Shown here piece by piece: positions 34,536 to 56,457 of a stretch of 64,000 nt of DNA. The position numbers were made by a program, and so were the translations under genes. The stretch comes from Micromonospora chersina. Its GTDB lineage: Bacteria; Actinomycetota; Actinomycetes; Mycobacteriales; Micromonosporaceae. The DNA lies in assembly GCF_900091475.1 (NCBI RefSeq), contig NZ_FMIB01000002.1, positions 558,001 to 622,000 on the forward strand, in the 5' to 3' direction. A model generated the notes under the pieces. That model was not told the origin of the DNA and did not search any database. It saw nothing but the letters and a program-made list of their open reading frames with translations. How positions within the stretch are numbered: position 1 is the stretch's first letter; the number at the start of each line of letters is the position of its first letter.

Positions 34536-34547
34536 GGAAACGTTTTC
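34536..34547. promoter_or_regulatory. LacI-type operator 1 (GGAAACGTTTTC)
   Basis: Imperfect palindrome centred on the CpG typical of LacI/PurR-family sites (AAACGTTT core). It lies just upstream of the -35 element of the regulator promoter. Confidence 0.6.
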
Positions 34548-34591: not shown

Positions 34592-34603
34592 GGAAACGTT
34601 TAC
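34592..34603. promoter_or_regulatory. LacI-type operator 2 (GGAAACGTTTAC)
   Basis: Palindrome with AAACGTTT core overlapping the predicted transcription start. Centre is 56 bases from operator 1 and 43 bases from operator 3. Confidence 0.68.
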
Positions 34604-34627: not shown

Positions 34628-35716
34628 GTGGGTCGTAAACGTTTACAGGAGTCGGCCGACGGCCGGCCCACCGTCCACACCGTCGCCGCCCGCGCCGGTG
34701 TCTCCATCGCCTCCGCCTCCCGCGTGCTCAACGGCGTCGGCGGCAGCCCGGAGACCGTCCGCAAGGTGCGCGAGGCCGCGGCCGAGGTCGGCTACGTGCC
34801 CAACGCCATCGCCCGCTCGCTCCAGTCGCAGCGCACCGGCCTCGTGGCGCTCGCCGTCGAGGACATCGGCAACCCGGTGTACGTCGAGATGATGCGGGCC
34901 ATCGAGTCCGTGGTGGCCGCGTCCGGCCGGCAGCTGCTGGTGCACGCCACCGGCGGGCAGATCGCCAACGAGACCGCCCTGCTGCGCCGGCTGGCCCACC
35001 GCTACGTCGACGGGATGATCGTCTCCCCGATCCGGGTCACCGACGACCACCTCGCCGCGCTCGTCGACAGCCCGGTGCCGGTGGTCGTTGTCGGCCAGCT
35101 CGCCGCCGACGCGCCCGTGGACAACGTCCGCACCGACTCGCGTACCGGCGTGGGGCTGGCCGTCGACCACCTGGTCGCGGCCGGGCGGCGGCGGATCGGC
35201 TTCGTCAACGGCCCGCTGGACACGGTGCCCGGCGCGGCCCGCGACGCCGGCTTCCGGGCCGCCCTCGCCGGGCACGGCATCGCGCTCGACGAGCGCCTCG
35301 TCGAGGTCGGCGACTTCCGGTACGAGCCCGGCCGGGCCGCCACCGAGCGCCTCCTCGCCCGTGCCGAGCCCGACGCGCTGGTCTGCGCCAACGACCTCAT
35401 CGCCGTCGGCGCGCTGCACGCCCTGCTGGCCGCCGGCAGGCGCGTCCCCGAGGACGTGGCGGTCGTCGGCATGGACGACACCGAGCTGGCCCGGATGATG
35501 TTCCCGCAGCTCTCCAGCGTCTCCCTCGGCTCGGCCGAGCGCGGTCGCCGCGCCGCCGAACTGCTGCTCCAGCGCATCGCCGACCCGACCCTGCCGCCAC
35601 GCCGCGAGCAGGTCGCCCCCAGCCTCGCCGTGCGCGCCTCCAGCGCCGCGACACCCTTCGTCCCCGCGCCGGCCGAGCCGGCGCCCGCGCCGCGTACCCC
35701 GGAGGTGACGGCATGA
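34628..35716 (+). CDS. LacI-family transcriptional regulator of the downstream operon
   Basis: 362-aa repressor. An N-terminal helix-turn-helix (TVHTVAARAGVSIASASRVLNG) and hinge (VPNAIARSLQSQRTG) precede a periplasmic-binding-protein-like domain for sugar ligands (LVALAVEDIGNPVYVEMMRAIE to the C-terminal PQLSSVSLG). The GTG at 34628 is favoured because GGAGG is eight bases upstream; a GTG at 34619 is in frame but lacks spacing. Codons 3-7 overlap a perfect operator. The C-terminal 25 residues are Pro/Ala-rich. Its stop overlaps the first permease start (ATGA), so it is the first gene of its own operon. Confidence 0.93.
   Translation: MGRKRLQESADGRPTVHTVAARAGVSIASASRVLNGVGGSPETVRKVREAAAEVGYVPNAIARSLQSQRTGLVALAVEDIGNPVYVEMMRAIESVVAASGRQLLVHATGGQIANETALLRRLAHRYVDGMIVSPIRVTDDHLAALVDSPVPVVVVGQLAADAPVDNVRTDSRTGVGLAVDHLVAAGRRRIGFVNGPLDTVPGAARDAGFRAALAGHGIALDERLVEVGDFRYEPGRAATERLLARAEPDALVCANDLIAVGALHALLAAGRRVPEDVAVVGMDDTELARMMFPQLSSVSLGSAERGRRAAELLLQRIADPTLPPRREQVAPSLAVRASSAATPFVPAPAEPAPAPRTPEVTA
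34635..34646. promoter_or_regulatory. LacI-type operator 3, perfect palindrome inside the regulator's first codons
   Basis: GTAAACGTTTAC, a perfect 12-bp palindrome with the CpG centre, begins seven bases after the first base of the GTG start. It is the best match of the three sites and would act as a downstream roadblock or looping partner. Confidence 0.75.
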
Positions 35717-36645
35717 CCACGGTGGCCGAACGGCCCGACGTCGCCCGCTCCGACGGGCCCCGCAGGGCGCGGTCCCGCTCCGACCGGCTCGGCATCTACC
35801 TGCTGCTGCTCCCGTCGCTGCTGCCCATCGTGGTGCTGTCGGTGTTCCCCCTCGTTCGCGGCATCTACCTCGGCTTCACCGACGCGCGGGCCGGGCGCAA
35901 CGTCGAGATCAGCTTCACCGGGCTGGCCAACTACCGGGAACTGCTCGGCGACGAGCTGTTCTGGAACTCGTTCAAGATCGGTCTGCTCTGGGCGGTCGGG
36001 GTGACAGTGCTCCAGTTCGTGCTCGCCCTCGGCCTGGCCCTGCTGCTCAACCAGCAACTGCGCTTCCGCGGGCTGGCCCGGGTGCTGGCCGTGGTGCCCT
36101 GGGCGATGCCGCCCGTGGTCGTCGGCATCCTCTGGAAGCTGGTCTACCACCCGGACGCCGGCCTGCTGAACGAGTTCTTCCACCGGATCGGCGCCGACGG
36201 GCTGCGCACCAACTGGCTCGGCGACTTCAGCACCGCCCTCGTCGCGGTCATCGTCGTCGGCGTCTGGGCCGGCATGCCGCAGACCACCGTCGTCCTCCTG
36301 GCCGGGTTGCAGGGCGTGCCGCGTGAGCTGCACGAGGCGGCCGCGGTGGACGGTGCCTCCACCTGGCACCGGTTCCGCAACGTCACGCTGCCCGCCATCG
36401 CGCCGGTTGTCGTGGCGATCACCTCGCTCGACTTCATCTGGAACTTCAACTCGTTCGGCCTGGTCTACGTGCTCACCGCGGGCGGGCCGGGCGGCAAGAC
36501 CATGCTGCCGATGCTCTTCGCCTACGAGGAGGCGTTCCGCTACGGCAACTACGGCTACGCCGCGGCCCTCGGCAACGTCATGGTCGTGATCATCGTCGCG
36601 CTGCTCGCGGTCTACCTGCGTCGCCGGTTGAGGGAGGCGAACTGA
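35713..36645 (+). CDS. Carbohydrate ABC transporter permease (MalF type)
   Basis: 310-aa inner-membrane permease with six helices; first helix LGIYLLLLPSLLPIVVLSVFPLV. The EAA loop reads LHEAAAVDGASTWHRFRNVTLP at about 207-228. Start ATG overlaps the regulator stop. It pairs with the next gene to move the operon's substrate. An N-terminal Arg/Ser-rich stretch precedes the first helix. Confidence 0.92.
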   Translation: MTTVAERPDVARSDGPRRARSRSDRLGIYLLLLPSLLPIVVLSVFPLVRGIYLGFTDARAGRNVEISFTGLANYRELLGDELFWNSFKIGLLWAVGVTVLQFVLALGLALLLNQQLRFRGLARVLAVVPWAMPPVVVGILWKLVYHPDAGLLNEFFHRIGADGLRTNWLGDFSTALVAVIVVGVWAGMPQTTVVLLAGLQGVPRELHEAAAVDGASTWHRFRNVTLPAIAPVVVAITSLDFIWNFNSFGLVYVLTAGGPGGKTMLPMLFAYEEAFRYGNYGYAAALGNVMVVIIVALLAVYLRRRLREAN

Positions 36646-36646
36646 C

Positions 36647-37486
36647 ATGTTCGGAAAGCCGAGCCGCACCGGGCGGACGCTCCAGTACGTCGCGCTGACC
36701 GGGTACCTGATCTTCCTCGGGTTCCCGCTGGTCTGGCTGCTCTCCACCGCGTTCAAGCCGCCGCGCGAACTGGTGCAGCTGCACCCCACGCTCATCCCGA
36801 GCAACCCCACCGTGCAGAACTTCGTGCAGGCCTTCACCGAGCAGCAGCTCGGCCGGGCCGCGCTGAACAGCCTCCAGGTGTCCCTCGCCTCGGCGGTGCT
36901 CACCGTGCTGGTCGCGCTGCCCGCCTCGTACGCCCTCGCGCGGTTCCGGACGAAGCTCGGCACCGTCGCGCTGGGCTGGGTGCTGCTGTCGCAGCTCTTC
37001 CCGTTCGTGCTGCTGATCATCCCGATCTTCCTGATCCTGCGGCAGGTCGGGCTGGCCAACACGCACGCCGGGCTGGTGCTGATCTACGTGGTCTGGGCGC
37101 TGCCGTTCGCCCTGTGGATGCTCCAGGGCTTCGTCCGCAACATCCCCCGGGAGCTGGAGGAGGCGGCCAGCGTCGACGGCGCCACCCGCCTCCAGGTGCT
37201 GCGCCGGGTGGTCTTCCCGCTGCTCGCGCCGGGCATCGTGGCCACCGCGCTGTTCTCCTTCATCTCCGCCTGGAACGAGTTCTTCTTCGCCCTCGTGCTG
37301 GTCAAGACGCCCGAGCTGGCGACCCTGCCGGTCGCCCTGGCCCGGTTCGTCGGCATCGAGGGCACCGCCCGCCTGGGCCCGCTGGCGGCCGGTTCGCTGC
37401 TGGCCACCCTGCCCAGCCTGATCTTCTTCGCGGTCATGCAACGCCGCCTCTCGTCCGGGTCGCTCGCCGGCGCGGTCAAGGGCTGA
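36647..37486 (+). CDS. Carbohydrate ABC transporter permease (MalG type)
   Basis: 279-aa second permease with six helices and EAA loop LEEAASVDGATRLQVLRRVVFP. The ATG is one base after the previous stop. Family and order (permease, permease, binding protein) differ from the 4324-7555 importer, where the binding protein comes first. No ATPase gene in the operon; a shared MsiK-type ATPase is expected. Confidence 0.92.
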   Translation: MFGKPSRTGRTLQYVALTGYLIFLGFPLVWLLSTAFKPPRELVQLHPTLIPSNPTVQNFVQAFTEQQLGRAALNSLQVSLASAVLTVLVALPASYALARFRTKLGTVALGWVLLSQLFPFVLLIIPIFLILRQVGLANTHAGLVLIYVVWALPFALWMLQGFVRNIPRELEEAASVDGATRLQVLRRVVFPLLAPGIVATALFSFISAWNEFFFALVLVKTPELATLPVALARFVGIEGTARLGPLAAGSLLATLPSLIFFAVMQRRLSSGSLAGAVKG

Positions 37487-37521
37487 CCACACCCCCAACC
37501 ACCACCAAGGAGGAATCCCCC

Positions 37522-38817
37522 ATGCTCCGTAGCAGATTCCGCCGACTCGCCGCGGCCACCGCGGTCGCGGTCGTCGGGCTCGGCGCCCTCACCGCCTGCG
37601 GTGACGGCGGCGGCGAGGACGAGAACTCGTCCGGCCCGGCCAAGCTGCGCTTCCTCAGCCTCGCCTGGCAGAAGGAGTCGCTCCAGGCCAACAAGGACCT
37701 GGTCGCCAAGTGGAACAGCGAGCACCCGGACATCCAGGTCGAGTACGTCCAGGGTGACTGGAACTCGATCCACGACCAGCTCGTCACCTCGTTCGAGGGC
37801 GGCGACGTGGCCGACATCGTCCACTACGAGGCCTCGGCCATCGGCGAGTTCAGCAAGCAGGGCTACCTGACCGACCTCTCCAAGCTGCTCGGCGACGACT
37901 TCAAGAGCCAGATCGACCCGGGCGTCTGGGACACCGCCACCTTCGACGGCAAGGTCACCGGCGTGCCGTTCCTGCTGGAGTCGCAGGTCGTCATCGCCAA
38001 CAAGAAGCTGCTCGACGCCGCCGGCATCGCCGTACCGCCCGCCGACGGCGGCTGGACCTGGGACGAGTTCCAGGCCAACGCCCAGAAGCTCACCAAGCCC
38101 GGCCAGTACGGCGCGGCCTGGGCGCTCAAGTCGCCCACCAACCGGGTGCTGAACCTGGCGTTGAACTACGACGGCAAGTTCTTCTACACCGAGGGCGGCA
38201 AGACCGAGGTCAAGGTCGGTGACGCGGAGAAGGAGGTGCCGAAGCGGATCCACGACATGCTCTACACCAGCAAGTCGGCCTCCCCGGAGGCGCTGGGCAT
38301 GAGCGGCGCGGACACCCTGCCCGGCTTCTTCGGTGGCAAGTACGCCATGCTCCCCGGCTCGGTCTCGCTGCGCCAGCAGATGGTCGAGCAGGCTCCCGCC
38401 GGCTTCGAGTGGGTGACCCTCCCGCCGATCAAGGGCCTCTCCAGCAAGCAGGCCGCCAACCCGCAGACCCTGTCCATCGCCGAGGACAGCAAGCACAAGA
38501 AGCAGGCCGCGCAGTTCCTGGAGTGGTTCCTCAACCCGAGCAGCATGGCCGCCCTGGCCAAGGGTGACTGGCTGGTGCCCACCGGCAAGCAGGCCAACGA
38601 GGAGCTGGTCAAGCTGACCGGCGGCAAGCAGGGCTGGGACGTGGCCGCGGACAGCGCCGCCGACCTGACCGTCGCCCCGTTCCAGAAGGCCGACGGCTAC
38701 CCGGAGTGGAAGACCAAGTACGCCACCCCGGCCCTCCAGCAGTACTTCGCCAACAAGATCACCCTGGACCAGCTCGGCACGCAGCTGGTCGACGGTGGCA
38801 AGCAGGTTCTGAGGTAA
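37522..38817 (+). CDS. Sugar ABC transporter substrate-binding lipoprotein
   Basis: 431-aa lipoprotein, solute-binding family 1. Signal MLRSRFRRLAAATAVAVVGL with lipobox ending LTAC, then a Gly/Asp/Glu-rich linker. The mature part begins LRFLSLAWQKES; FEGGDVADIVHYEASAIGEF is the usual ligand-contact region. The ATG has an AAGGAGG site in a 35-base gap, the only long gap within the operon, which fits the need for high expression of the binding protein. Substrate probably a glycoside or nucleoside-like sugar, judging from the enzymes encoded downstream. Confidence 0.92.
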   Translation: MLRSRFRRLAAATAVAVVGLGALTACGDGGGEDENSSGPAKLRFLSLAWQKESLQANKDLVAKWNSEHPDIQVEYVQGDWNSIHDQLVTSFEGGDVADIVHYEASAIGEFSKQGYLTDLSKLLGDDFKSQIDPGVWDTATFDGKVTGVPFLLESQVVIANKKLLDAAGIAVPPADGGWTWDEFQANAQKLTKPGQYGAAWALKSPTNRVLNLALNYDGKFFYTEGGKTEVKVGDAEKEVPKRIHDMLYTSKSASPEALGMSGADTLPGFFGGKYAMLPGSVSLRQQMVEQAPAGFEWVTLPPIKGLSSKQAANPQTLSIAEDSKHKKQAAQFLEWFLNPSSMAALAKGDWLVPTGKQANEELVKLTGGKQGWDVAADSAADLTVAPFQKADGYPEWKTKYATPALQQYFANKITLDQLGTQLVDGGKQVLR

Positions 38818-38819
38818 CC

Positions 38820-39953
38820 ATGTCACTCTTGCTCGACACGTCGGTCGGATGCCTGGTCGGCGCCGCGGTGGGCGACGCCCTCGGCGGGGCCACCGAGACG
38901 GCCCTTCCGGAGCAGATCCGCGCCCGCTTCGGCGGCTGGGTCGAGGGGATCGTCCCCCCGTACCACGCCGACTGGGCCACCGCGCGGCCACTCGCGCCGT
39001 ACCACAAGGGCGACGGGCACATCACCGACGACACGTTGATGACCCACGCCCTGGTCCGGGCGTACGCGGCCAAGCGGGACCACCTCGACGCGTACGACGT
39101 GGTGGAACTGCTCGTCCCCGACCTGATCGAGCGGGTGGTGTACATCCCGGACCTGGAGCGGGAGGGGGTGACCTTCCACCGCCTGGCCGCGGCCGAGCGG
39201 TGGCTGGTCACCCGCCTGCACCACGCCCACGCCGACCCGCGTGAGGCGGGCGTGGGCAACATCGTGAACTGCGGCGCCGCCATGTACATGGCCCCGGTCG
39301 GCATCGTCAACGCCGGCGACCCGGCCGGGGCGTACGCCGAGGCCGTGGAGATCGCCGGGGCGCACCAGCACAGCTACGGCCGGGAGGCCGCGGCGGTCTT
39401 CGCCGCCGCGGTCGCCGCCGCCGCGACCCCCGGCGCGAGCGTCGACGACGTCGTGGCCGCCACCCTCGACCTGGCCCGCGACGGCACCCGCGCCGCCATC
39501 GACGCGGTGGTCAAGGAGGCCCGCGGGCACGACGACTGGAAGGCCGCCATTCCGGCGCTGCGCGCCGCCGTGGCCCCCTACGACACGGTGGGGGAGGAGT
39601 ACCGCAGCCCCGGCCTGGGCGCCCGCCGCCCGAGCCGGCTGCACGCCATCGAGGAACTGCCGGTGGCGCTCGGCATGCTCGTGGTGGCCGGCGGCGACTA
39701 CCGGGCGGCCGTGCTCGGCTCGGTCAACTACGGCCGGGACGCCGACTCCACGGCCACCATGGCCGGCGCGATCGCCGGTGCGCTCGGCGGCGCGGCGGCG
39801 GTGCCGGCCGAGTGGTCGGAGGTGGTCGCGCAGGCGTCCCGCACCGACCTGGTCGAGCCCGCCCGCGTCCTCGCCGGGGTGGCCACCGAGGTGTTCGACC
39901 GCGACCGGGAGCGCTTCGCCCGGCGCGCCGAGCGGTTCGGCAGGCTGGCATGA
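38820..39953 (+). CDS. ADP-ribosylglycohydrolase family protein (canonical metal site)
   Basis: 377-aa all-helical ARH-fold enzyme. GAAVGDALGG at 14-23, first metal motif ITDDTLM (T69, D70, D71, T72), second metal motif GRDADSTATMAGAI with D307, D309, S310. All magnesium ligands of the family are present. Known relatives release ADP-ribose from proteins or dinitrogenase reductase, but many act on other N- or O-ribosyl bonds. Only two bases separate it from the binding-protein stop. Placement inside a sugar catabolic operon argues for a small-molecule ribosyl or glycosyl substrate. Confidence 0.9.
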   Translation: MSLLLDTSVGCLVGAAVGDALGGATETALPEQIRARFGGWVEGIVPPYHADWATARPLAPYHKGDGHITDDTLMTHALVRAYAAKRDHLDAYDVVELLVPDLIERVVYIPDLEREGVTFHRLAAAERWLVTRLHHAHADPREAGVGNIVNCGAAMYMAPVGIVNAGDPAGAYAEAVEIAGAHQHSYGREAAAVFAAAVAAAATPGASVDDVVAATLDLARDGTRAAIDAVVKEARGHDDWKAAIPALRAAVAPYDTVGEEYRSPGLGARRPSRLHAIEELPVALGMLVVAGGDYRAAVLGSVNYGRDADSTATMAGAIAGALGGAAAVPAEWSEVVAQASRTDLVEPARVLAGVATEVFDRDRERFARRAERFGRLA

Positions 39954-41329
39954 GCGCTGCCGGGACACCGGCCCGCGGGCTCCGGCTGACCTGGGTGCAG
40001 CCGGAGGACCTGCTGCCGCACGAACTGGCCGCGAGCCGCGACGAGGGCCGCGACGTCACCGCACTGGCCGACCGCTGGACGGCGGCCGGCGGCGACGTCA
40101 CGGCCCCGGTCAGCGGGGCCTCGCCGGTGCCGGCCCCGCCGGAACTGCGGGCCCTCGCCGTCGACCTGCTCGACGCCGCCGACGCGCTGCCCGGCCCCGA
40201 CGGCGCGGACGAGCCCGACGACCTCGACGCGGTCCGCAAGACCTGGCCGGGCGCCTGGGACCTGCCGACCACTGTCGAGCGGGACCGGCTGCACGGGGCC
40301 TGGCTCGGCCGGGCGGCCGGCTGCCTGCTCGGCAAGCCGGTGGAGAAGATCCCCCGCCACGGGATCCGGGAGATCCTCTCCGCCACCGGCCGGTGGCCGC
40401 TGCGCGACTGGTTCACGGCGCGAGGGCTGCCGGCCGACGTGGCCGCCCGCTGGCCGTGGAACCGGCGCAGCGCGCCGACCAGCCTCGCCGAGAACATCGC
40501 CGGCATGCCCGAGGACGACGACCTCAACTTCGCGCTGCTGGCGCTGCGGATCCTGGAGACCCACGGGCCCGGCTTCACCAGCGCCGACGTGGCGCAGGCG
40601 TGGCTGGACTGGCTGCCCGCGGGGCGGGTCTTCACGGCCGAGCGGGTCGCCTACCGCAACCTGCTGCTCGGCCTCACCCCGCCGGAGACCGCCCGCCGGC
40701 ACAACCCGTTCCGGGAGTGGATCGGCGCGCAGATCCGCACCGACGTGTACGGCTGGACCAACCCGGGCCGCCCCGACCGGGCCGCCGAGGCCGCCTGGCG
40801 CGACGCCGCCGTGAGCCACGTCCGGGCCGGGGCGTACGGGGCGATCTGGGTGGCCGCCCTGGCCGCGGCCGCGCCGGTGGCCGGCGACGTCGACGCCGTG
40901 CTGGACGCCGGTGAGTCGGTGCTGCCCCCGGGCAGCCGGTTCACCGCGGCGGTCCGGGAGGCGCGCGCCCTCGGCGCCGGGGGCGAGGACTGGGAGAGCA
41001 TCGTGGACACCCTCTACGCGCGGCACGGCCACCTGCACTGGGTGCACGTCCGCAACAACGCGGCCCTCGTCGCGGCGGCCCTCGCGTACGGGCGGGGCGA
41101 CCTGGAGCGGTCCATCTGCGCGGTGGTCGCCGGCGGCTGGGACACCGACTCCAACGGCGCCACCGTCGGCGCGGTCACCGGGGCGCTCACCGGCGCCGGT
41201 CGGCTGCCGGGGCGCTGGGTCACGCCGCTGCGCAACCGGCTGGCCAGCAGCATCGCCGGCTTCGACGGCATCGGCTTCGACGAGCTGGCCGACCGTACCC
41301 TCGCCCTCGCCCACGGGAACCGGGCATGA
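39950..41329 (+). CDS. Second ADP-ribosylglycohydrolase family protein (variant metal motif)
   Basis: 459-aa paralogue with an extra ~110-residue N-terminal part (LRLTWVQPEDLLPHELAASRDEGRD). The ARH domain begins at GAWLGRAAGCLLGKPVEKIPR. The first metal motif is changed from TDDT to E188-D-D-D191-L-N-F, while the second keeps GGWDTDSNGA (D398, D400, S401). This form is a separate subfamily from the preceding gene and is probably not redundant with it. ATG overlaps the previous stop by four bases. C-terminus ends in DELADRTLALA. Confidence 0.88.
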   Translation: MSAAGTPARGLRLTWVQPEDLLPHELAASRDEGRDVTALADRWTAAGGDVTAPVSGASPVPAPPELRALAVDLLDAADALPGPDGADEPDDLDAVRKTWPGAWDLPTTVERDRLHGAWLGRAAGCLLGKPVEKIPRHGIREILSATGRWPLRDWFTARGLPADVAARWPWNRRSAPTSLAENIAGMPEDDDLNFALLALRILETHGPGFTSADVAQAWLDWLPAGRVFTAERVAYRNLLLGLTPPETARRHNPFREWIGAQIRTDVYGWTNPGRPDRAAEAAWRDAAVSHVRAGAYGAIWVAALAAAAPVAGDVDAVLDAGESVLPPGSRFTAAVREARALGAGGEDWESIVDTLYARHGHLHWVHVRNNAALVAAALAYGRGDLERSICAVVAGGWDTDSNGATVGAVTGALTGAGRLPGRWVTPLRNRLASSIAGFDGIGFDELADRTLALAHGNRA

Positions 41330-42258
41330 GCGCCCGGGTGGTCGTGGTCGGCAGCGCCAACCTGGACCTGGTGGTCACCGCGCCGCAGCTGCCCCGGCCC
41401 GGCGAGACGGTGCTCGGCGACGACTTCCGGATGGTGCCCGGCGGCAAGGGCGCCAACCAGGCGGTCGCCGCGGCCCGGGCTGGCGCGGACTGCGCGTTCG
41501 TGGGCGCGGTCGGCGGCGACGGGTTCGGCGGGCTGCTGCGGGACAACCTGGCCGGCGCCGGTGTCGACCTGCGCGGCCTGCGCACCGTCGACGGGCCGTC
41601 CGGGGTCGCGCTGATCGCCGTCGACCACGCCGCGGAGAACTGCATCGTGGTCGCCCCGGGCGCGAACGCCGCGCTGACGCTGCACGACGCCGACCGCGCG
41701 GCGGTGGCCGAGGCCGACGTGCTGCTGCTGCAACTGGAGGTGCCCCTCGCGGAGGTCACCCGGGCCGCCGGCTGGGCCCGCACCGGCGGCGCCGCCGTGG
41801 TGCTCAACGCCGCCCCGGCCCGGCCGCTGCCGGCCGAACTGCTCGACCTCGTCGACGTGCTGGTGGTCAACGAGCACGAGGCCGCCACCGTGGCCGGCGT
41901 GTTCACCGACGATCCGGCGGCGCTGCTCGACACCCTGGTCGGCCTCGTGCCCCGGGTGGTGCTCACCCTCGGCGCGCGCGGCGCAGCCTACGCCGACCGC
42001 GACGGCGCCCGGATCGAGGTGCCCGCCCCGAAGATCGACGCGGTGGACACCACGGCCGCCGGCGACGCGTTCACCGGCGCGCTCGCCGTCGCCCTGGCCG
42101 AGCGTGGCGGCCTCACCGGGGACACCGCCACGGCCGTGCTGCGCTGGGCGTGCGCCGCCGGCGCGGCCTGCGCCCAGCGCCCCGGCGCCTCCACCGCCCT
42201 GCCCGAGCGGGCCGCCATCGACGCGCTGTCCGCCGCCACCTACGGAGAGGTCGAGTGA
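41326..42258 (+). CDS. Ribokinase-like PfkB-family carbohydrate kinase
   Basis: 310-aa sugar kinase. N-terminal GSANLDLVV and GGKGANQAVAAARAG are ribokinase-like; NEHEAATVAG marks the nucleotide side, and DTTAAGDAFTGAL holds the catalytic base D247 and the anion hole. It would phosphorylate ribose or a related pentose using ATP. Next to two ARH-fold hydrolases it fits a route in which ribose released from a riboside is trapped as a phosphate. Start ATG overlaps the previous stop (ATGA). Confidence 0.9.
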   Translation: MSARVVVVGSANLDLVVTAPQLPRPGETVLGDDFRMVPGGKGANQAVAAARAGADCAFVGAVGGDGFGGLLRDNLAGAGVDLRGLRTVDGPSGVALIAVDHAAENCIVVAPGANAALTLHDADRAAVAEADVLLLQLEVPLAEVTRAAGWARTGGAAVVLNAAPARPLPAELLDLVDVLVVNEHEAATVAGVFTDDPAALLDTLVGLVPRVVLTLGARGAAYADRDGARIEVPAPKIDAVDTTAAGDAFTGALAVALAERGGLTGDTATAVLRWACAAGAACAQRPGASTALPERAAIDALSAATYGEVE

Positions 42259-44201
42259 GCTTCAACCCGTACGTGCCCCGGCCGATCGACCGGCCCACCG
42301 AGGTGCCGCTCGGCGCGCACGCCGACCTGACCACCCTGGACGAGGCGAAGATCTTCGCCGCCCCCGACAACCCCGCCGACTGGCCGGCCTGGCGGGAGCA
42401 GCTCACCCGGTGGCGGGCCGACGCCCGCGCCCGGCTCGGCTACACCGGCGCGCACTACGACGAGATCGCCGGGGACTGCTTCACCGTCTGCCTGGCCTGG
42501 TTGTGGGACGAGACGCTCTACGACCACGACCGCGGCGAGTTCACCGTCGCGGCGTTCCTCGACGCGGCGCGGCGCGACTTCGGCGGCTTCGACGGGGTGG
42601 TGCTCTGGCACGCGTACCCGGTGATCGGCCTGGACGACCGCAACCAGTTCGACTGGTACCGCGACGTGCCCGAACTGCCCCAGGTGGTCCGCGCGTTCCA
42701 GGACGCCGGGGTCCGGGTGTTCGTCGACTACAACCCGTGGGACACCGGCACGCGGCGCGAGCCCGGCGCCGACGCGGAGGAGGTCGCGGCGCTGGCCGAC
42801 CGGCTCGGTGTCGACGGCGTCTTCCTGGACACCCTCAAGGAGGGCGCCGGCGAGCTGCGCAAGGCCCTCGACGCGGTCCGCCCGGGCCTGGTCCTGGAGG
42901 GGGAGAGCCGGGTGCCGCTGGCCCGGATCTCCGACCACGCCATGTCGTGGGCGCAGTGGTTCGCCGACTCGGACACCCCCGGTGTGCTGCGAGCCAAGTG
43001 GTTCGAGCGCCGGCACGTCCTGCACCACACCCGGCGCTGGCACCGCGACCACCTCGACGAGCTGCACTCGGCCTGGCTCAACGGCTGCGGCGTGCTGGTC
43101 TGGGAGAGCGTCTTCGGCGTCTGGGTCGGCTGGAACGAGCGGGACCGGGCTGTGCTGCGGGCCATGCGCCGGGTGCAGGCCAGCCACGCCGCGTGGTTGC
43201 GCGCCGAGGACTGGGTCCCGCTCGCCGACCACCCCGGCGCCGGCCAGGTGTACGCGTCCCGCTGGACCCACGACGGCCAGCCGCTGTGGACGGTCGTCAA
43301 CCGCGGCGCCGACCACGACGGCCCCTGGCTGCTCACCGACGCCCGGCCCGGGCGCTTCGTCGACCTGGTCACCGGCGCCGAGCTGACCGTCACCGAACTC
43401 GAGGACGGTCGGGTCGCGGTCGGCGGGCCCCTGCCCGCCGGGGCGATCGCCGCCGTGGTCGCCACCGACACCCCGGTGCCCCGGCACGAGCCGCCGACCG
43501 GCGACCCGTCCTTCCCGGCCCGCGCCGCCGTGCGCGCCCGCACCCCGTGGTCGCCCCTGGCCGCCCTGCCCGACGGCATGGTCACCGTCGACGGTGGCAG
43601 GCACGACCTGACCGTCCACCACCGGGTCCGGGAGACCGGCCTCTACGGCGAGGCCCCGTACGTCGACGAGTGGAAGCCGCTGCCGCCCCGCCTGCACCAC
43701 ACCGGCACGCTGCGCCGCCCGGTCCGGCTCGGCCGGTTCGCCATCGACACCCACGAGGTCACCCACGGGCAGTACGCGCGCTTCCTCGCCGCCACCGGCT
43801 ACCGCCCGGTCCGGCCCGAACGGTTCACCGCCGGGCAGGGCCCCGCCGACGCCCCGGTCACCGGGGTGGACCTCGCCGACGCCCGCGCGTACGCCGACTG
43901 GGCCGGGCTGCGGCTGCCCACCGAGGACGAGTGGCAGGTGGCCGCCGAGGCGGGCCTGCTGGTCCGGCGGGAGCCCCTGGTGTGGAACCTGACGGAGAGC
44001 GAGCACTCCGACGGGCGGACCCGCTTCGTCATCCTGAAGGGCGGCTGCGCGTACCGGGCCGAGGGCTCCGACTGGTACCTCGACGGCGGCCCGCAGCCGC
44101 CGGACGTGTCGGTGAAGCTGCTGCTCACCGGCGCCGGCCTCGGCCGCTCCACCTCGATCGGCTTCCGCTGCGCCGCCGACCTGCCCGAGGTGGCGCGATG
44201 A
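42255..44201 (+). CDS. TIM-barrel glycoside-hydrolase-like protein fused to a SUMF1/FGE-type domain
   Basis: 648-aa cytoplasmic protein of unusual build. Residues ~60-310 look like a TIM barrel (FDGVVLWHAYPVIGLD, VRVFVDYNPWDTG, VDGVFLDTLKEG, LVLEGESRVP), and ~320-420 like a small beta-domain. Residues ~455-645 match the formylglycine-generating-enzyme/sulfatase-modifying fold (IDTHEVTHGQYARFLAATGY, LRLPTEDEWQVAAEAG, FVILKGGCAY, IGFRCA). The paired active-site cysteines of true FGE are not apparent; C598 sits at the GGS/GGC position. Enzyme activity is not assigned. GTG overlaps the kinase stop. Confidence 0.75.
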   Translation: MSFNPYVPRPIDRPTEVPLGAHADLTTLDEAKIFAAPDNPADWPAWREQLTRWRADARARLGYTGAHYDEIAGDCFTVCLAWLWDETLYDHDRGEFTVAAFLDAARRDFGGFDGVVLWHAYPVIGLDDRNQFDWYRDVPELPQVVRAFQDAGVRVFVDYNPWDTGTRREPGADAEEVAALADRLGVDGVFLDTLKEGAGELRKALDAVRPGLVLEGESRVPLARISDHAMSWAQWFADSDTPGVLRAKWFERRHVLHHTRRWHRDHLDELHSAWLNGCGVLVWESVFGVWVGWNERDRAVLRAMRRVQASHAAWLRAEDWVPLADHPGAGQVYASRWTHDGQPLWTVVNRGADHDGPWLLTDARPGRFVDLVTGAELTVTELEDGRVAVGGPLPAGAIAAVVATDTPVPRHEPPTGDPSFPARAAVRARTPWSPLAALPDGMVTVDGGRHDLTVHHRVRETGLYGEAPYVDEWKPLPPRLHHTGTLRRPVRLGRFAIDTHEVTHGQYARFLAATGYRPVRPERFTAGQGPADAPVTGVDLADARAYADWAGLRLPTEDEWQVAAEAGLLVRREPLVWNLTESEHSDGRTRFVILKGGCAYRAEGSDWYLDGGPQPPDVSVKLLLTGAGLGRSTSIGFRCAADLPEVAR

Positions 44202-45385
44202 CCGCTCCGCTGCACGGCATCAAGGTCGTCGACCTGGCCACCCTGTTCGCCGGCCCGCTGGCCGCCGCGTTCCTCGGCGACTTCGGCGCCGACGTGGTCA
44301 AGGTGGAGCACCCCGCCAAGCCCGACCCGTCCCGGGGCCACGGCCCCGCGAAGGACGGCGTCGGCCTGTGGTGGAAGGTGCTCGGCCGCAACAAGCGGAC
44401 CGTCACGCTCAACCTGTCCCACCCCGAGGGCGCCGACCTGCTGCGCCGGCTGCTCGCCGACGCCGACGTGCTGGTGGAGAACTTCCGCCCCGGCACGCTC
44501 GAACGCTGGGGTCTCGGCCCCGACGAGCTGCACGCCGTCAACCCGCGGCTGGTGATCGCCCGGATCAGCGGCTTCGGGCAGATCGGCCCGTACGCGCCCC
44601 GGCCCGGGTTCGGCACCCTCGCCGAGGCGATGAGCGGCTTCGCGGCGGCCACCGGGGAACCCGACGGGCCGCCGACCCTGCCGCCGTTCGGGCTGGCCGA
44701 CTCGGTCACCGCGCTCGCCGCCGCGTACGCGGTCATGCTGGCCCTGCGCGGCCGCGACCTGACCGGCCGCGGCCAGGTCGTCGACCTCGCCATCATCGAG
44801 CCGATCATGGCGATGCTCGGCCCGCAGATCACCTGGTACGACCAGCTCGGCTACGTCCAGCCCCGGCTGGGCAACCGGTCCAACAACAACGCGCCCCGCA
44901 ACACCTACCGGTGCGCCGACGGGCGGTGGGTGGCCGTGTCCACCAGCGCGCAGAGCATCGCCGAGCGGGTGGTCCGCCTCGTCGGCCGCTCCGACCTGGT
45001 CGACGAGCCGTGGTTCGCCACCGGCAGCGGCCGGGCCGCGCACGCCGACGAACTCGACGCGGCGGTCGGCGGCTGGGTGGCGAAGCGGGACCGCGACGAG
45101 GTGGTGGCGGCGTTCGAGGCGGCCCAGGCCGCCGTTGCCCCCGTCTACGACGTGCGGGACATCCTCGCCGACCCGCAGTACGCGGCGCTCGGCACCGTGG
45201 TCACCGTCCCCGACGAGGAACTGGGGGAGGTACGCATGCAGAACGTGCCGTTCCGCATGTCGGACAGCCCGGGGGAGATCCGGCACGCGGGCCGCCGCCA
45301 CGGCCAGGACACCGACGCCGTGTTCGGCGCGCTCGGGCTGACCGGCGACGAGCTGGCCGCGCTGCGGGAGCGCGGGGTGATCTGA
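44198..45385 (+). CDS. Family III CoA-transferase (CaiB/BaiF)
   Basis: 395-aa enzyme that moves CoA between carboxylic acids without a covalent phospho step. N-terminal GIKVVDLATLFAGPLAAAFLGDFGADVVKVEHP and KRTVTLNLSHPEG are diagnostic; the catalytic aspartate is D168 in GLADSVTALAAAYAV, and NAPRNTYRCADGRWVAVS begins the second domain. Partners such as formyl-, succinyl- or citramalyl-CoA transfer are known in the family. The next gene is a CoA-ester lyase, so it probably activates a hydroxy- or branched dicarboxylic acid for cleavage. ATG overlaps the preceding stop. Confidence 0.92.
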   Translation: MTAPLHGIKVVDLATLFAGPLAAAFLGDFGADVVKVEHPAKPDPSRGHGPAKDGVGLWWKVLGRNKRTVTLNLSHPEGADLLRRLLADADVLVENFRPGTLERWGLGPDELHAVNPRLVIARISGFGQIGPYAPRPGFGTLAEAMSGFAAATGEPDGPPTLPPFGLADSVTALAAAYAVMLALRGRDLTGRGQVVDLAIIEPIMAMLGPQITWYDQLGYVQPRLGNRSNNNAPRNTYRCADGRWVAVSTSAQSIAERVVRLVGRSDLVDEPWFATGSGRAAHADELDAAVGGWVAKRDRDEVVAAFEAAQAAVAPVYDVRDILADPQYAALGTVVTVPDEELGEVRMQNVPFRMSDSPGEIRHAGRRHGQDTDAVFGALGLTGDELAALRERGVI

Positions 45386-46206
45386 TGCTGCTCACCCTGC
45401 TCTACGTGCCCGGCGACCGCCCCGACCGGTTCGCCAAGGCGGTCGCCGCCGGCGCCGACGCGGTCATCCTCGACCTGGAGGACGCCGTCGTGGCCGGCCG
45501 CAAGGCGTACGCCCGGGAGGCGGTCGCCGAGTTCCTGGCCGACCCGCAGCCGCTGCCCGTGCAGGTCCGGGTCAACGAGCTGACCGGCCCCGACGTCGCC
45601 GCCGACCTGGCCGCCGTCGCCGGCCGGCCGGGGCTTTCCGGGCTGCGCCTGCCCAAGGTGGAGTCCCCGGCGACCGTCGCCGCCGTGGCCGCCCGGGTCG
45701 ACACCCCGCTGCACCCGCTTGTCGAGTCGGCCGTCGGGCTGGAGTCCGCGTACCCGATCGCGGCCGCCCACCCGTCGGTGGCCTCGCTGGGGCTCGGCGA
45801 GGCCGACCTCCGCTCCGACCTGGGTGTCGCCGACGACGACGGCCTGCTCTGGGCCCGCGGCCGGATCGTGGTCGCGGCCCGCGCGGCCGGCCTGCCGCCG
45901 CCGGTCATGTCGGTGTACGCCGACGTCACCGACCTCGACGGCCTGGCCGCCTCCTGCGCGGCCGGCCGGCGGCTCGGCTTCCTCGGCCGGGCCGCCATCC
46001 ACCCGCGCCAGCTGCCGGTGATCGCGGCCGCGTTCCGCCCCGCCGACCGGGAGGTGGACCGGGCCCGGGAACTGCTCGCCGCGCTCGCCGACGCGCAGAC
46101 CCGCGGCTCCGGCACCGTGGTGCTGCCCGACGGCCGGTTCGCCGACCGCGCCATGGTGGCCGCCGCCCGCCGCGTCGTCGACCTCGCCGCCCGCTACGCC
46201 GCCTGA
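45385..46206 (+). CDS. CitE-like CoA ester lyase (HpcH/HpaI aldolase family)
   Basis: 273-aa TIM-barrel lyase: LYVPGDRPDRFAKAVAAGADAVILDLEDAV is the CitE opening, with metal and substrate ligands in RVNELTGP, LPKVESP, LVESAVGLE and LGLGEADLRSDLG. Stand-alone CitE homologues cleave malyl-, beta-methylmalyl- or citramalyl-CoA to acetyl-CoA or propionyl-CoA and a 2-oxoacid. It is last in the LacI-controlled operon and overlaps the CoA-transferase stop as TGATG. Together they make a plausible activation and cleavage step for the non-sugar part of the imported compound. Confidence 0.9.
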   Translation: MLLTLLYVPGDRPDRFAKAVAAGADAVILDLEDAVVAGRKAYAREAVAEFLADPQPLPVQVRVNELTGPDVAADLAAVAGRPGLSGLRLPKVESPATVAAVAARVDTPLHPLVESAVGLESAYPIAAAHPSVASLGLGEADLRSDLGVADDDGLLWARGRIVVAARAAGLPPPVMSVYADVTDLDGLAASCAAGRRLGFLGRAAIHPRQLPVIAAAFRPADREVDRARELLAALADAQTRGSGTVVLPDGRFADRAMVAAARRVVDLAARYAA

Positions 46207-48137: not shown

Positions 48138-49916
48138 ATGGGGGATCGGGCACGGCTGGACCGGCGCAGCCTGCTCGTGGCCGCCGGTGGCCTCGCGGTC
48201 GCCGGGATCGGCGTACCCGTGGGCCTGGCCGCCACCGGCGACCCGCCGCCGGTCGCCCGCGGACGCCGGCCGATCAGCATGGCCATGCACCTGCACGCGT
48301 CGTTCAGCGAGGGCGTCGCCAGCTACGCCGCCCACCTCGACCAGGCCCGGCGCAACGCCGTCGACGTGATCTGGTGGACCGACCACGACTTCCGGGTGGC
48401 CGCCCACGACCACCGCCGCGTCGTCCACTTCGACGGGCCCGAGGAGGCCGAGGGCGGGCTCGCGTGGACCTGGACGGAGTCCACCGAGGGCGCGCTCACC
48501 GCCTCGGCCGCCGACTTCGTGCCCGCCGCCGCCGACGACCCGGGCCGCGCGTTGCGGCTCACCGCCGCCGGCGCCGGCATCCTCTGGTACGCCGGCAAGG
48601 CGTGGAACTGGACGCACACCGGGAACATCTCCGACACCACGCTGTACCTCGACGTGCTGCCCGAGACCGCCGGCCCCGACGCCACCCTGATCGTGGAGAT
48701 CGCGCTGTCCCACCACCCGGCCGGCGCGGGCCGCCCCGCCGGCCAGCTCGTGCTGCGCTACCGCCTGGGCGCGGCGACCGACACCCGGCACCACGCCGAC
48801 GGTCGGCACGGCACCGTCGACCTGCCCGCCCCGGCCGGCGCCTGGCGGCGGCACACCCTCGACCTGCTGTCCGACGTGCGGCGGCTCTGGCCGGACCTGG
48901 TGGCGGGCGACAACTCGCTGCGTGGGCTGCGGCTCGGGGTGCAGGTCGCCGGCGGCTCGCGGGGCGCGTACGTGGTCGACCGGCTCGTCTTCGACCGGGC
49001 CCGGCGCGCCGGGCAGGCCGGCGAGGAACTGCGCGCCGAGGTGCTGCGCGGCTACGCCGGGGCGTACCCGGGAGTGACCCGCCACCGCGCCTACGAGGTG
49101 TCGATGGTCCGGCACCTCAACTGGTTCGGCGGCGACCAGACGCTGCCGCGCTTCCCGTCGCCGCCGTACCGGGACAACGACGTCGGGGCCACCGAACGGA
49201 TGGTCGAGTTCCTCCACGACCACGGCGGGGTGGTCTGCTGGAACCACCCGCTCGACGTGGAACGCCGCGAGTCCCTCGCGCGGCTGCTGGTGGAGCGGCA
49301 CGCGCTCGGCGTCGACCTGATCGAGATCGGCCGCGAACCGGTCGACGACCACCTCTGGGCGTACGACGTGGCGGCCCGCAACGCCGTCCCGGTGACCGCC
49401 GTCGGGGTGACCGACGACCACGACGGCACCGACTGGCGGGCCGGGCGGGACCGGCACGTCACGTACGTGTGGGCGGCCTCCACGGGTCGCGACGACCTGG
49501 TGGCGGCGCTGCGGGCCGGCCAGGCCTGGTTCACCGACCTGGCCCGCTACCGGGGCGCCCTCGACCTGGAGATCGGCGGTCGCAGCGCGATGGGCGCCGT
49601 GCTGACCACCGACGCCGGTGAGCTGACCGTGCGACTGCGTGCCACCGACCTGCCGGCCGGCGCGACCCTGGAGGTGGTGACCGGGGCGGTCGACCTGGCG
49701 GGCGTCGCCGATCCCACCCCGGCGATCGAGATCGGACAGGTGCCCTGGCGTCAGCTCCGGCAGGGCTGGCACGACCTGCCGGTCTCGCCCGGCGCGGGCA
49801 GGTACCTGCGGACCCAGGTCCGGGGGCGGGACGGCGTGATCATCGGGGCCGGCAACCCGGTCTGGCTGCTGCGCCAGCCCCCACCCCGCGGCATCCCCCC
49901 GGCCCGCCGCTTCTGA
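48138..49916 (+). CDS. Tat-exported PHP-domain (CehA/McbA-like) metallohydrolase
   Basis: 592-aa exported protein. Twin-arginine signal LDRRSLLVAAGGLAVAGIG. The PHP metal site is split along the chain: MAMHLHASFSEG and VIWWTDHD near the N-terminus, VCWNHPLDV and VTAVGVTDDHDG in the C-terminal half. Between them (~110-300) lies a beta-sandwich insert resembling a carbohydrate-binding or concanavalin-like domain. It probably hydrolyses phosphoesters or related bonds outside the membrane. ATG with a GGGGGAG site; a TACGCT hexamer about 40 bases upstream could be the -10. Confidence 0.82.
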   Translation: MGDRARLDRRSLLVAAGGLAVAGIGVPVGLAATGDPPPVARGRRPISMAMHLHASFSEGVASYAAHLDQARRNAVDVIWWTDHDFRVAAHDHRRVVHFDGPEEAEGGLAWTWTESTEGALTASAADFVPAAADDPGRALRLTAAGAGILWYAGKAWNWTHTGNISDTTLYLDVLPETAGPDATLIVEIALSHHPAGAGRPAGQLVLRYRLGAATDTRHHADGRHGTVDLPAPAGAWRRHTLDLLSDVRRLWPDLVAGDNSLRGLRLGVQVAGGSRGAYVVDRLVFDRARRAGQAGEELRAEVLRGYAGAYPGVTRHRAYEVSMVRHLNWFGGDQTLPRFPSPPYRDNDVGATERMVEFLHDHGGVVCWNHPLDVERRESLARLLVERHALGVDLIEIGREPVDDHLWAYDVAARNAVPVTAVGVTDDHDGTDWRAGRDRHVTYVWAASTGRDDLVAALRAGQAWFTDLARYRGALDLEIGGRSAMGAVLTTDAGELTVRLRATDLPAGATLEVVTGAVDLAGVADPTPAIEIGQVPWRQLRQGWHDLPVSPGAGRYLRTQVRGRDGVIIGAGNPVWLLRQPPPRGIPPARRF

Positions 49917-55689: not shown

Positions 55690-56456
55690 GCGCTCCCGTC
55701 GCCGCCGTGCGGCACACCGGCGAGTTCTTCGCGTTCTGCCTGGACACCCTGCGCGGGCTGGGCCGCCGGCCGGTGCAGGTCCGCGAGTTCGTCCAGCAGG
55801 CCTGGTTCATCAGCTCGGTGTCCATCCTGCCCGCCGCGCTGGTCTCCATCCCGTTCGGCGCGGTCATCGCGCTCCAGCTCGGCACGCTGGTCCGCCAGCT
55901 CGGCGCGCAGTCGTTCACCGGCGCCGCGTCCGTGCTCGCCGTGGTCCGCGAGGCCGGCCCGATCGTCACCGCGCTGATCATCGCGGGCGCCGGCGGCTCG
56001 GCCATCTGCGCCGACCTCGGCGCGCGGAAGATCCGCGAGGAGCTGGACGCCATGCAGGTGCTCGGCATCGACCCGATCCACCGCCTCGTGGTGCCCCGGG
56101 TGCTCGCCTCGATGCTTGTCGCGGTGCTGCTCAACGGGCTGGTCAGCGTGGTCGGCGTGACCGGCGGCTACGCGTTCAACGTGGTGCTCCAGGGCGGCAC
56201 GCCCGGGGCGTACCTGGCGAGCTTCCAGGCCCTCGGCCAGCTGCCCGACCTGCTCGTCGGCGAGGTGAAGGCGCTGCTGTTCGGGGCCGCCGCCGCGCTT
56301 GTCGCCAGCCACCAGGGGATGACCGCCAAGGGCGGGCCGAAGGGCGTCGGTGACGCGGTCAACCGCAGCGTGGTGATCACCTTCATGCTGCTGTTCGCGC
56401 TGAACTTCGTGGTCACGGCCGTGTACTTCCAGGTCGTCCCGCAGAAGGGGAGCTGA
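55686..56456 (+). CDS. YrbE/MlaE-family permease A
   Basis: 256-aa membrane protein with about five helices. MlaE-family landmarks are SVSILPAALVSIPFGAVIALQ, the loop VREAGPIVTALIIAGAGGSAI and IREELDAMQVLGIDPI, which contacts the ATPase in the same way as an EAA loop. Forms the membrane channel of the Mce transporter with the next gene. ATG overlaps the ATPase stop (ATGA). Confidence 0.92.
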   Translation: MSAPVAAVRHTGEFFAFCLDTLRGLGRRPVQVREFVQQAWFISSVSILPAALVSIPFGAVIALQLGTLVRQLGAQSFTGAASVLAVVREAGPIVTALIIAGAGGSAICADLGARKIREELDAMQVLGIDPIHRLVVPRVLASMLVAVLLNGLVSVVGVTGGYAFNVVLQGGTPGAYLASFQALGQLPDLLVGEVKALLFGAAAALVASHQGMTAKGGPKGVGDAVNRSVVITFMLLFALNFVVTAVYFQVVPQKGS

Positions 56457-56457
56457 C

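What the first reader, a model, noticed from the sequence alone, without database searches (positions are those of the whole stretch)
34628..46206. Ten-gene LacI-controlled operon pairing two ARH hydrolases, a ribokinase, a TIM-barrel/SUMF1 fusion and a CoA-transferase/lyase pair
Sequence shows eight of the nine junctions overlap or are separated by at most two bases (the exception is the RBS-bearing gap before the binding protein), so this is one unit. Known families: ARH enzymes cut ribosyl or glycosyl bonds, PfkB kinases trap the freed pentose, CaiB-type transferases make CoA esters and CitE-type lyases cleave hydroxyacyl-CoA. Inference: uptake and dismantling of a conjugate of a pentose and a carboxylic acid, a pathway I do not recognise as described.
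Basis: partly seen in the sequence, partly recalled or inferred. Interest (0 to 1): 0.85.

Follow-up and report, generated by a model that had tools for sequence, protein, structure and literature searches.

The report
Undescribed glycoside–hydroxyacid breakdown operon
A ten-gene bacterial operon, found almost gene for gene in distant bacteria, looks like a pathway not yet described for importing an unknown sugar–acid compound, cutting it apart and feeding both halves into metabolism; its key cutting enzymes belong to a family known for a different job.

Summary
Ten + strand genes (34628-46206) form one unit: LacI, two permeases, binding protein, two ARH-fold hydrolases, PfkB kinase, a TIM-barrel/FGE-like fusion (g8), a CaiB CoA-transferase and a CitE lyase. 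Hosts span Actinobacteria, Deinococcota and Alphaproteobacteria. The kinase is not hit in 10 loci, so it is not core. Three LacI-type operators lie at the operon's start and nowhere else in the genome at one mismatch or fewer.

Sphingomonadales carry a second, TonB/SSF-type version. Its CaiB falls in a separate clade (AU p = 6.6e-6), and a GH127-family glycosidase stands in place of the ARHs in 7 of 11 genomes. That argues that these ARHs are catabolic glycosidases, not ADP-ribosylation erasers.

Most likely mechanism: import of a glycoside of a 3-hydroxy-dicarboxylic acid (citramalate- or HMG-like), cytoplasmic hydrolysis, sugar phosphorylation, acid activation and retro-Claisen cleavage. Every reaction and the substrate are inferred. 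My searches of an open-licence library found no description.

The parts
34536..34547 (+). LacI-type operator O1 (GGAAACGTTTTC, 1 mismatch to GKAAACGTTTMC)
   Evidence: a looser core of the motif lies near LacI in 59 of 67 relatives
34592..34603 (+). LacI-type operator O2 (GGAAACGTTTAC)
   Evidence: no further site in the 6.68-Mb genome at <=1 mismatch
34635..34646 (+). LacI-type operator O3 (GTAAACGTTTAC), overlapping the first codons of gene 1
34628..35716 (+). g1 LacI/RbsR-type repressor
   Evidence: PF00356/PF13377; best NCBIfam hit is an RbsR model, under its cut-off
35713..36645 (+). g2 ABC permease (MalF/UgpA type)
   Evidence: PF00528
36647..37486 (+). g3 ABC permease (MalG type)
   Evidence: PF00528
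37522..38817 (+). g4 solute-binding protein of CUT1 type, lipoprotein-like N-terminus (by eye)
   Evidence: PF01547; distant PDB hits only
38820..39953 (+). g5 ARH1, ARH-fold hydrolase with metal-site motifs kept (E26, T69 D70 D71, D307 D309 S310)
   Evidence: PF03747; DraG/MJ1187 alignment; conservation 76-77 of 77 rows
39950..41329 (+). g6 ARH2, ARH-fold hydrolase with ~115-residue N-terminal extension; E132, D189-191, D398, D400 kept; GDA motif changed to GRA
   Evidence: PF03747 (residues 116-421); conservation 76 of 76 rows
41326..42258 (+). g7 PfkB, ribokinase-like sugar kinase (accessory)
   Evidence: PF00294; TIGR02152 272.8 bits vs cut-off 299.65; not hit in 10 of 80 loci
42255..44201 (+). 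g8: glycosidase-like (beta/alpha)8 barrel + beta-sandwich (about 16-406) fused to FGE-like domain (437-644); invariant D192 (after strand 4) and E217 (end of strand 5)
   Evidence: model; conservation 81 of 81 rows, and 11 of 11 distant paralogs
44198..45385 (+). g9 family III (CaiB) CoA-transferase, conserved Asp168
   Evidence: PF02515; D168 79 of 79 rows
45385..46206 (+). g10 CitE/RipC-like beta-hydroxyacyl-CoA lyase, metal ligands E114 and D141 kept
   Evidence: PF03328; 79 of 79 rows; ligands identified through Rv2498c (PMC6689899, passages)

Best explanation
This is a LacI-repressed catabolic operon. It imports, by a CUT1-type ABC transporter that would borrow a shared ATPase, a glycoside whose aglycone (or a released part) is a 3-hydroxy-dicarboxylic acid. 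In the cytoplasm ARH1, ARH2 and the glycosidase-like g8 hydrolyse its glycosidic bonds. The ARHs work as glycosidases for a furanoside-type bond, the slot that GH127 fills in sphingomonads. The freed sugar, probably a pentose, is phosphorylated by PfkB or a housekeeping kinase. The freed acid, whose 3-hydroxyl would be the position blocked by the sugar, is activated by CaiB, probably from succinyl-CoA, and cleaved by CitE to acetyl-CoA plus a keto acid: pyruvate if citramalate, acetoacetate if HMG, glyoxylate if malate. Shown by sequence: gene content, operator-like sites, kept active-site residues, conservation in three phyla, the ARH/GH127 swap and separate CaiB lineages. Inferred: every reaction, and the identity of sugar and acid.
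Against: No enzyme or substrate was tested. NCBIfam cut-offs are missed by a wide margin for CaiB and CitE, so their substrates cannot be read from the family. PfkB is not hit in 10 of 80 loci, and g8 is missing from L096 and L097 (one genus), so neither is indispensable. GH127 is not only an arabinofuranosidase family; members also cleave 3,6-anhydrogalactosides (PMC5698469, passages), so the swap does not prove a pentofuranoside. If the acid were plain malate, the CaiB/CitE route would be wasteful. A multi-ARH/PfkB/ABC locus without CaiB/CitE exists (L098). In L043 a FAS1-like dehydratase-region gene lies about 8 kb beyond g8; I read it as part of a neighbouring acyl-CoA dehydrogenase/thiolase cluster (L102), but it could instead feed CitE there. 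The CaiB tree used only eight or nine non-cluster rows and warns of long branches.
Confidence: 0.52

Rival explanations
1. CaiB and CitE act not on an aglycone but on an acid made from the sugar itself, for example a branched sugar acid such as aceric acid, so the operon degrades one unusual acidic sugar.
For: GH127 occupies the ARH slot in sphingomonads; some GH127 members are recalled as aceric-acid hydrolases (one search lists four papers holding both terms; I did not check the claim in them). L116 has an SDR, a 2-hydroxyacid dehydrogenase and a PEP-mutase-family protein beside the cluster.
Against: The core has no dehydrogenase, isomerase or dehydratase; a sugar kinase is usually present; I saw such oxidoreductases directly beside only one of the sphingomonad clusters listed (L116).
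Confidence: 0.2
2. The ARHs are true ADP-ribosylhydrolases (protein or nucleotide de-ADP-ribosylation or ADP-ribose salvage) that sit in a sugar operon.
For: PF03747 with DraG-like metal motifs kept in ARH1; a ribokinase-like kinase could use ribose. ARH, permease and ribokinase genes also lie together in a staphylococcal SCC-like element (PMC3637587, passages), which fits either reading.
Against: Import by a carbohydrate-type transporter; no Nudix or nucleotidase family among the ten genes; GH127 in place of ARHs in similar clusters; CaiB and CitE would have no role; ARH2 has GRA instead of GDA.
Confidence: 0.12
3. Two functions in one operon: a generic ribofuranoside utilisation system (ABC-ARH-PfkB, as in L098) to which an independent citramalate/malate assimilation pair (CaiB-CitE) has been attached.
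For: A multi-ARH/PfkB/ABC locus without CaiB/CitE exists (L098).
Against: CaiB and CitE accompany g8 in nearly all loci of two cluster types with different transporters, and the two CaiB groups are not one clade; no carboxylate transporter among the ten genes.
Confidence: 0.13

Closest known systems
Bacterial itaconate degradation (CoA-transferase, itaconyl-CoA hydratase, (S)-citramalyl-CoA lyase RipC/CCL)
   Same: A CoA-transferase paired with a CitE-family lyase; best NCBIfam hit of g10 is the RipC model and its best PDB matches are acyl-CoA lyase/citrate lyase entries recalled as RipC/CCL. Pathway outline from PMC6689899 (passages).
   Different: No hydratase in the window operon; family III CaiB; embedded with glycosidases, sugar ABC transporter and LacI; RipC equivalog score 156.6 vs cut-off 375.
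ADP-ribosylhydrolases (DraG/ARH1/ARH3)
   Same: PF03747 fold and metal-site residues.
   Different: Two, in some relatives four, divergent copies in one carbohydrate operon; ARH2 has a 115-residue extension and GRA in place of GDA; slot taken by GH127 elsewhere.
CUT1 sugar-utilisation operons of actinomycetes (LacI-permease-permease-binding protein-glycosidase; layout recalled)
   Same: Layout, LacI with operators at its own gene, no ATPase gene of its own.
   Different: Glycosidase role apparently played by ARHs and a barrel/FGE fusion; carries a CoA-transferase/lyase pair.
GH127 and GH129-like enzymes of carrageenan utilisation in Zobellia (PMC5698469, passages)
   Same: GH127 beside another glycosidase; precedent for non-homologous enzymes sharing one glycosidase activity in one locus; ZgGH129 is among the structural matches of g8.
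   Different: The passages seen name no ARH, CaiB, CitE or FGE fusion; marine red-algal substrate.
Rv2498c of M. tuberculosis (PMC6689899, passages)
   Same: CitE-family lyase with Glu112/Asp138 magnesium ligands; cleaves (S)-citramalyl-CoA and (R)-HMG-CoA.
   Different: 97 bits to g10 (6aq4); leucine/itaconate context, not a sugar operon.

Membership tests
ADP-ribosylhydrolase (ARH/DraG) | PF03747 domain above gathering score | tested here: met
   165.9 and 163.9 bits vs 26.2
ADP-ribosylhydrolase (ARH/DraG) | metal-site motifs (TDDT and DxD[ST]) and acidic catalytic residue | tested here: met
   ARH1 76-77 of 77 rows; ARH2 E132, D189-191, D398, D400 in 76 of 76 rows; which residues matter is partly recalled, partly from the DraG alignment. 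ARH2 has EDDD in place of TDDT
ADP-ribosylhydrolase (ARH/DraG) | equivalog models TIGR02662 / NF041672 | tested here: not met
   53.6 of 337.05 and 45.2 of 490 bits for ARH1; 27.2 of 337.05 for ARH2
ADP-ribosylhydrolase (ARH/DraG) | hydrolyses an ADP-ribosyl bond | not testable with these tools
   needs an assay
Citramalyl-CoA lyase RipC/CCL | PF03328 and Mg ligands Glu112/Asp138 of Rv2498c | tested here: met
   alignment; E114/D141 in 79 of 79 rows and 9 of 9 sphingomonad rows
Citramalyl-CoA lyase RipC/CCL | NCBIfam equivalog NF038242 cut-off | tested here: not met
   156.6 vs 375 bits
Family III CoA-transferase | PF02515 and catalytic Asp | tested here: met
   410.8 bits; D168 79 of 79 rows, aligned to the conserved Asp of YfdW (its catalytic role recalled)
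Family III CoA-transferase of known specificity | any NCBIfam equivalog cut-off | tested here: not met
   best 246 vs 750 bits, succinate-glutarate CoA-transferase; seven models listed, none reached
Ribokinase | TIGR02152 cut-off | tested here: not met
   272.8 vs 299.65 bits
Ribokinase | PfkB domain and catalytic Asp (recalled role) | tested here: met
   201.2 bits PF00294; D247 69 of 69 rows
GH13/GH129-like glycosidase (g8 barrel) | barrel with acidic pair on strands 4 and 5 | tested here: inconclusive
Formylglycine-generating enzyme (g8 C-terminal domain) | PF03781 and fold | tested here: met
Formylglycine-generating enzyme (g8 C-terminal domain) | two conserved active-site cysteines (recalled) | tested here: not met
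   no invariant Cys in the 32-row alignment; only C639 is nearly invariant

The most novel reading that the evidence does not exclude
The ARH fold has been recruited, in paralogous sets of two to four, as a class of dedicated catabolic furanosidases (possibly for 1,2-cis pentofuranosides, the geometry that I recall ARHs and beta-L-arabinofuranosidases to share). They are interchangeable with GH127 and serve a widespread undescribed pathway that splits a glycosylated 3-hydroxy-dicarboxylic acid and burns the acid by CoA transfer and retro-Claisen cleavage. It implies an abundant natural glyco-acid not yet recognised as a nutrient.
Probability: 0.33. Interest if true: 0.82.

Novelty: new variant of a known kind. 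Interest (0 to 1): 0.63.

Why it matters
A set of five functions recurs over three phyla with two transport systems and CoA-transferases of separate lineages, yet my searches of an open-licence library found no description. It offers a genetic handle on a substrate that soil and water bacteria evidently use, predicts non-ADP-ribosyl activity for a divergent branch of the ARH superfamily, and makes that testable with single-enzyme assays.

Tried and rejected
Considered and set aside: a coincidental operon of this strain only; a LacI regulon outside the operon (no further site at up to 1 mismatch; at exactly 2 mismatches 39 forward matches, against 19 matches at up to 2 for the reversed control pattern, an excess not followed up); the esterase elsewhere in this genome (only a 30.8-bit hit); genuine FGE chemistry of g8 (no conserved Cys pair). 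The absence of a named GH family for g8 in the fold lists is not evidence against one.

Led nowhere: the phylum-wide search (1 of 296 genomes, the own one; at most four first-look candidates per genome were scored in the rows shown, so misses are possible); the search of the order of the Devosia genome (1 of 297, the query genome itself); L102 (an acyl-CoA dehydrogenase/thiolase cluster beyond L043); L101 (wrong contig) and L100 (an idle fetch). Literature: searches without a description of such a cluster are (open-licence PMC only). One search matched 2,613 papers of which 25 were listed; searches matched none; searches matched 2, 3, 1 and 1.

Limits: neighbour genes come from home-made ORF callers; genus labels were typed from the titles. 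In one search some operon runs are cut short by the caller's gap rule, so presence and order counts rest on tblastn. Conservation rows are those passing length and score filters (76 ARH1, 75 ARH2, 80 g8, 78 CaiB, 78 CitE, 68 PfkB of 80 loci, plus the window). The species scan returned 80 of 235 places. The second structure prediction, two protein searches, a CitE tree and the remaining fold jobs were not used.
Full report
WHAT IS THERE. The window lies in a 6.68-Mb genome; the closest g8 hits are Micromonospora proteins at 97% identity. Ten + strand genes run from 34628 to 46206. Junctions are -4, +1, +35, +2, -4, -4, -4, -4 and -1 bases. Pfam gives LacI, two BPD_transp_1, SBP_bac_1, two ADP_ribosyl_GH, PfkB, FGE-sulfatase, CoA_transf_3 and HpcH_HpaI. 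No NCBIfam cut-off is reached by genes 5-10; the nearest miss is ribokinase (272.8 of 299.65 bits), while CaiB (246 of 750) and CitE (156.6 of 375) are far below.

REGULATION. Three copies of a palindrome, GKAAACGTTTMC, lie at 34536, 34592 and 34635 (mean 0.03 expected in shuffles at up to one mismatch). In the whole genome the exact motif occurs only at the last two, and with the flanking bases added only these three sites exist at one mismatch or fewer. At exactly two mismatches there are 39 more, against 19 for the reversed control; I did not follow them. A looser core (AA[AC]CG[TG]TT) lies between 400 bases upstream and 60 bases inside the LacI gene in 59 of 67 relatives in which that gene was called; the 8 without it include the three Kribbella loci and Nocardioides. 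This fits a dedicated, local, self-controlling repressor; binding was not tested.

CONSERVATION. A profile scan of the species collection found 235 places encoding a g8 relative and returned the best 80. By tblastn with the window proteins, hits were found for LacI in 70, permeases in 70 and 73, binding protein in 71, ARH1 in 77, ARH2 in 78, PfkB in 70, g8 in 80, CaiB in 79 and CitE in 78 of 80. All ten are hit in 64 loci, in the same order and strand in 64 of 64. All five of ARH1, ARH2, g8, CaiB and CitE are hit in 76; 70 of these have the order ARH1-ARH2-g8-CaiB-CitE and 6 have ARH1-ARH2-CaiB-CitE-g8. The four exceptions are L031, L033 and L050 (each cut by a contig end at that side; L050's CitE appears in the ORF list) and L043 (Sphingomonas, see below). 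Hosts include Micromonosporaceae, Jiangellaceae, Pseudonocardiaceae, Kribbella, Nocardioides, Georgenia, Cellulosimicrobium, Trueperaceae (Deinococcota), and Devosia, Pelagibacterium and Paracoccaceae (Alphaproteobacteria). Three of the four ABC-type alphaproteobacterial loci have a gene that looks like an ABC ATPase (by eye) between ARH2 and CaiB. PfkB is not hit in 10 loci: L039, L045, L048, L049, L050, L056, L058, L061, L067, L075; L050 is too short to tell.

In a sample of 200 Micromonosporaceae genomes, 54 have g8 at E <= 1e-100 and 59 have ARH2 at E <= 1e-60. By the printed positions all 54 g8 genomes have ARH2 on the same contig within about 3.3 kb. Five have ARH2 only. Of these I read G759 and G779 (L096, L097; one genus), which keep LacI, transporter, ARH1, ARH2, PfkB, CaiB and CitE without g8, with at least one further ARH-family hit, and G757 (L098), a different multi-ARH/PfkB/ABC locus without CaiB/CitE; for G721 only its weaker second hit (L099) was read, and G795 was not fetched. 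The cassette is patchy: in the phylum of the Trueperaceae genome 7 of 111 genomes have a g8 relative. One of those, L091, shows permeases, binding protein, ARH1, ARH2, CitE, g8, CaiB and a further ARH; another, L092, has two 30%-identical g8 relatives with an ARH and a PfkB only.

PARTNERS MISSING HERE. A PF00756 esterase with an apparent signal sequence (about 716 residues in L011, beta-propeller repeats) lies between g8 and CaiB in many Micromonosporaceae loci and near the cassette in Georgenia, Trueperaceae and Pelagibacterium: 27 genes under 11 labels (Pfam for L011 only). This genome lacks it. Most Jiangellaceae loci, Pseudonocardia and two Trueperaceae loci carry two more ARH-family genes between binding protein or LacI and ARH1, one with degenerate motifs as read by eye (Pfam for L054 and L058).

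ACTIVE SITES. Over the aligned orthologs the expected catalytic residues are kept: ARH1 E26 in 76 of 77 rows (one gap), T69, D70, D71, D307, D309 and S310 in 77 of 77; ARH2 E132, D189-191, D398 and D400 in 76 of 76, with GDA changed to GRA; CaiB D168 79 of 79; CitE E114 and D141 79 of 79, matching Glu112 and Asp138 of Rv2498c (PMC6689899, passages; alignment); PfkB D247 69 of 69; g8 D192 and E217 81 of 81. The roles of the ARH, CaiB and PfkB residues are recalled from the families.

A SECOND CLUSTER TYPE. In the order of Sphingomonas ERG5, 11 of 396 genomes have g8 or a 33-37% identical relative (ERG5 has both). For ERG5 (L043 with L103) and ten fetched loci (L116-L125) I listed neighbours. 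A CaiB gene is present in 11 of 11 and CitE in 10 of 11 (L116 is cut by its contig). A PfkB lies nearby in 11 of 11, but in the four GH127-less loci it is only 34-38% identical to the window kinase and not always on the same strand. A TonB receptor is present in 11 of 11; an SSF symporter is seen in 9, the other two (L116, L119) being cut. A GH127-family gene adjoins the g8 relative in 7 of 11 (ERG5's verified by Pfam; six by tblastn at 62-71% identity to it). Of the four without GH127, two have an ARH2 (44-45% identity) plus another ARH next to CitE (L127, L128), one has only the other ARH (L126), and L122 ends before that point. No ARH hit occurred in the six GH127 loci searched or in L043; L103 was read as an ORF list with six Pfam scans split between it and L102. 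A PF00135 carboxylesterase sits inside one such cluster (L118), and similar-looking genes in L119, L129 and L130 (by eye).

SEPARATE CaiB LINEAGES. In CaiB trees the ABC-type clusters from three phyla form one group (support 97/96 with 48 rows; 91/96 with 27 rows, not starred), and the sphingomonad cluster CaiBs fall elsewhere. Holding both together is rejected (AU p = 6.6e-6). Caveats: eight or nine non-cluster CaiBs only, long branches, and the programme's warning that long branches meet. If right, the same activity was added twice to a similar glycosidase/kinase/lyase set, which is hard to explain without a common pathway. Catalytic residues are again kept: g8 relatives D192/E217 11 of 11, CitE 9 of 9, CaiB 11 of 11, ARH2 2 of 2; other g8 residues differ there (E215 to Q, H257 to N or Q, D238 variable).

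MECHANISM. The parts specify: (optional) exported esterase trims the substrate; ABC or TonB/SSF import; cytoplasmic cleavage by g8 and ARHs or GH127; sugar phosphorylation; CoA transfer to an acid; C-C cleavage. CitE-family lyases act on beta-hydroxyacyl-CoAs such as citramalyl-, malyl- and HMG-CoA (PMC6689899, passages). No hydratase is in the window operon, so the acid should arrive hydroxylated, and a glycosidic bond on that hydroxyl would explain why glycosidases and lyase travel together. That link is inference. In L043 a FAS1-like dehydratase-region gene lies about 8 kb beyond g8, next to an acyl-CoA dehydrogenase/thiolase cluster to which I assign it. GH127 includes beta-L-arabinofuranosidases (start of the abstract of PMC10850190 in the listing) but also 3,6-anhydrogalactosidases, where GH127 and GH129-like enzymes share one activity (PMC5698469, passages), so the sugar remains open. 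An ARH-permease-ribokinase trio in a staphylococcal element (PMC3637587, passages) is a further hint that ARHs can belong to uptake systems.

VERDICT. The pathway is probably real, and my searches of the library found no description; its substrate is unknown.

Noticed in passing
window 44198-44201 (junction of g8 and g9); L011:11941-14091: In M. fulviviridis (L011, g8 97% identical) a 716-residue esterase gene sits between g8 and CaiB; in the window g8 and CaiB overlap by 4 bases and the gene is absent, so it seems to come or go as a unit.
   Followed up: partly
L098:5765-9357: Three ARH-family genes in a row beside LacI, ABC transporter genes and a PfkB, without CaiB/CitE: a sister class of multi-ARH operon.
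   Followed up: partly
L092:1-8530: Two g8 relatives (30% identity to the window's) flank a gene that looks like a solute-binding protein, with an ARH and a PfkB nearby; their printed N-termini are identical.
   Followed up: no
L043:6635-9067: SSF symporter with an N-terminal extension of about 300 residues before the SSF domain; relatives of the whole protein lie in eight other sphingomonad clusters.
   Followed up: no
window 54724-64000: Run of + strand genes that look like an mce-type transporter operon (ATPase, two permeases, several Mce-like proteins; assignment recalled from the translations).
   Followed up: no
window 48138-49916; L024:14455-16254: A TAT-signal-like protein that looks like a PHP-type metal hydrolase follows the cassette here and in L024 (by eye).
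   Followed up: no
G727, G740, G741, G745, G787, G813, G821: Some Micromonosporaceae g8 matches contain an in-frame stop or are split in two pieces, suggesting decay or assembly errors in a few genomes.
   Followed up: no
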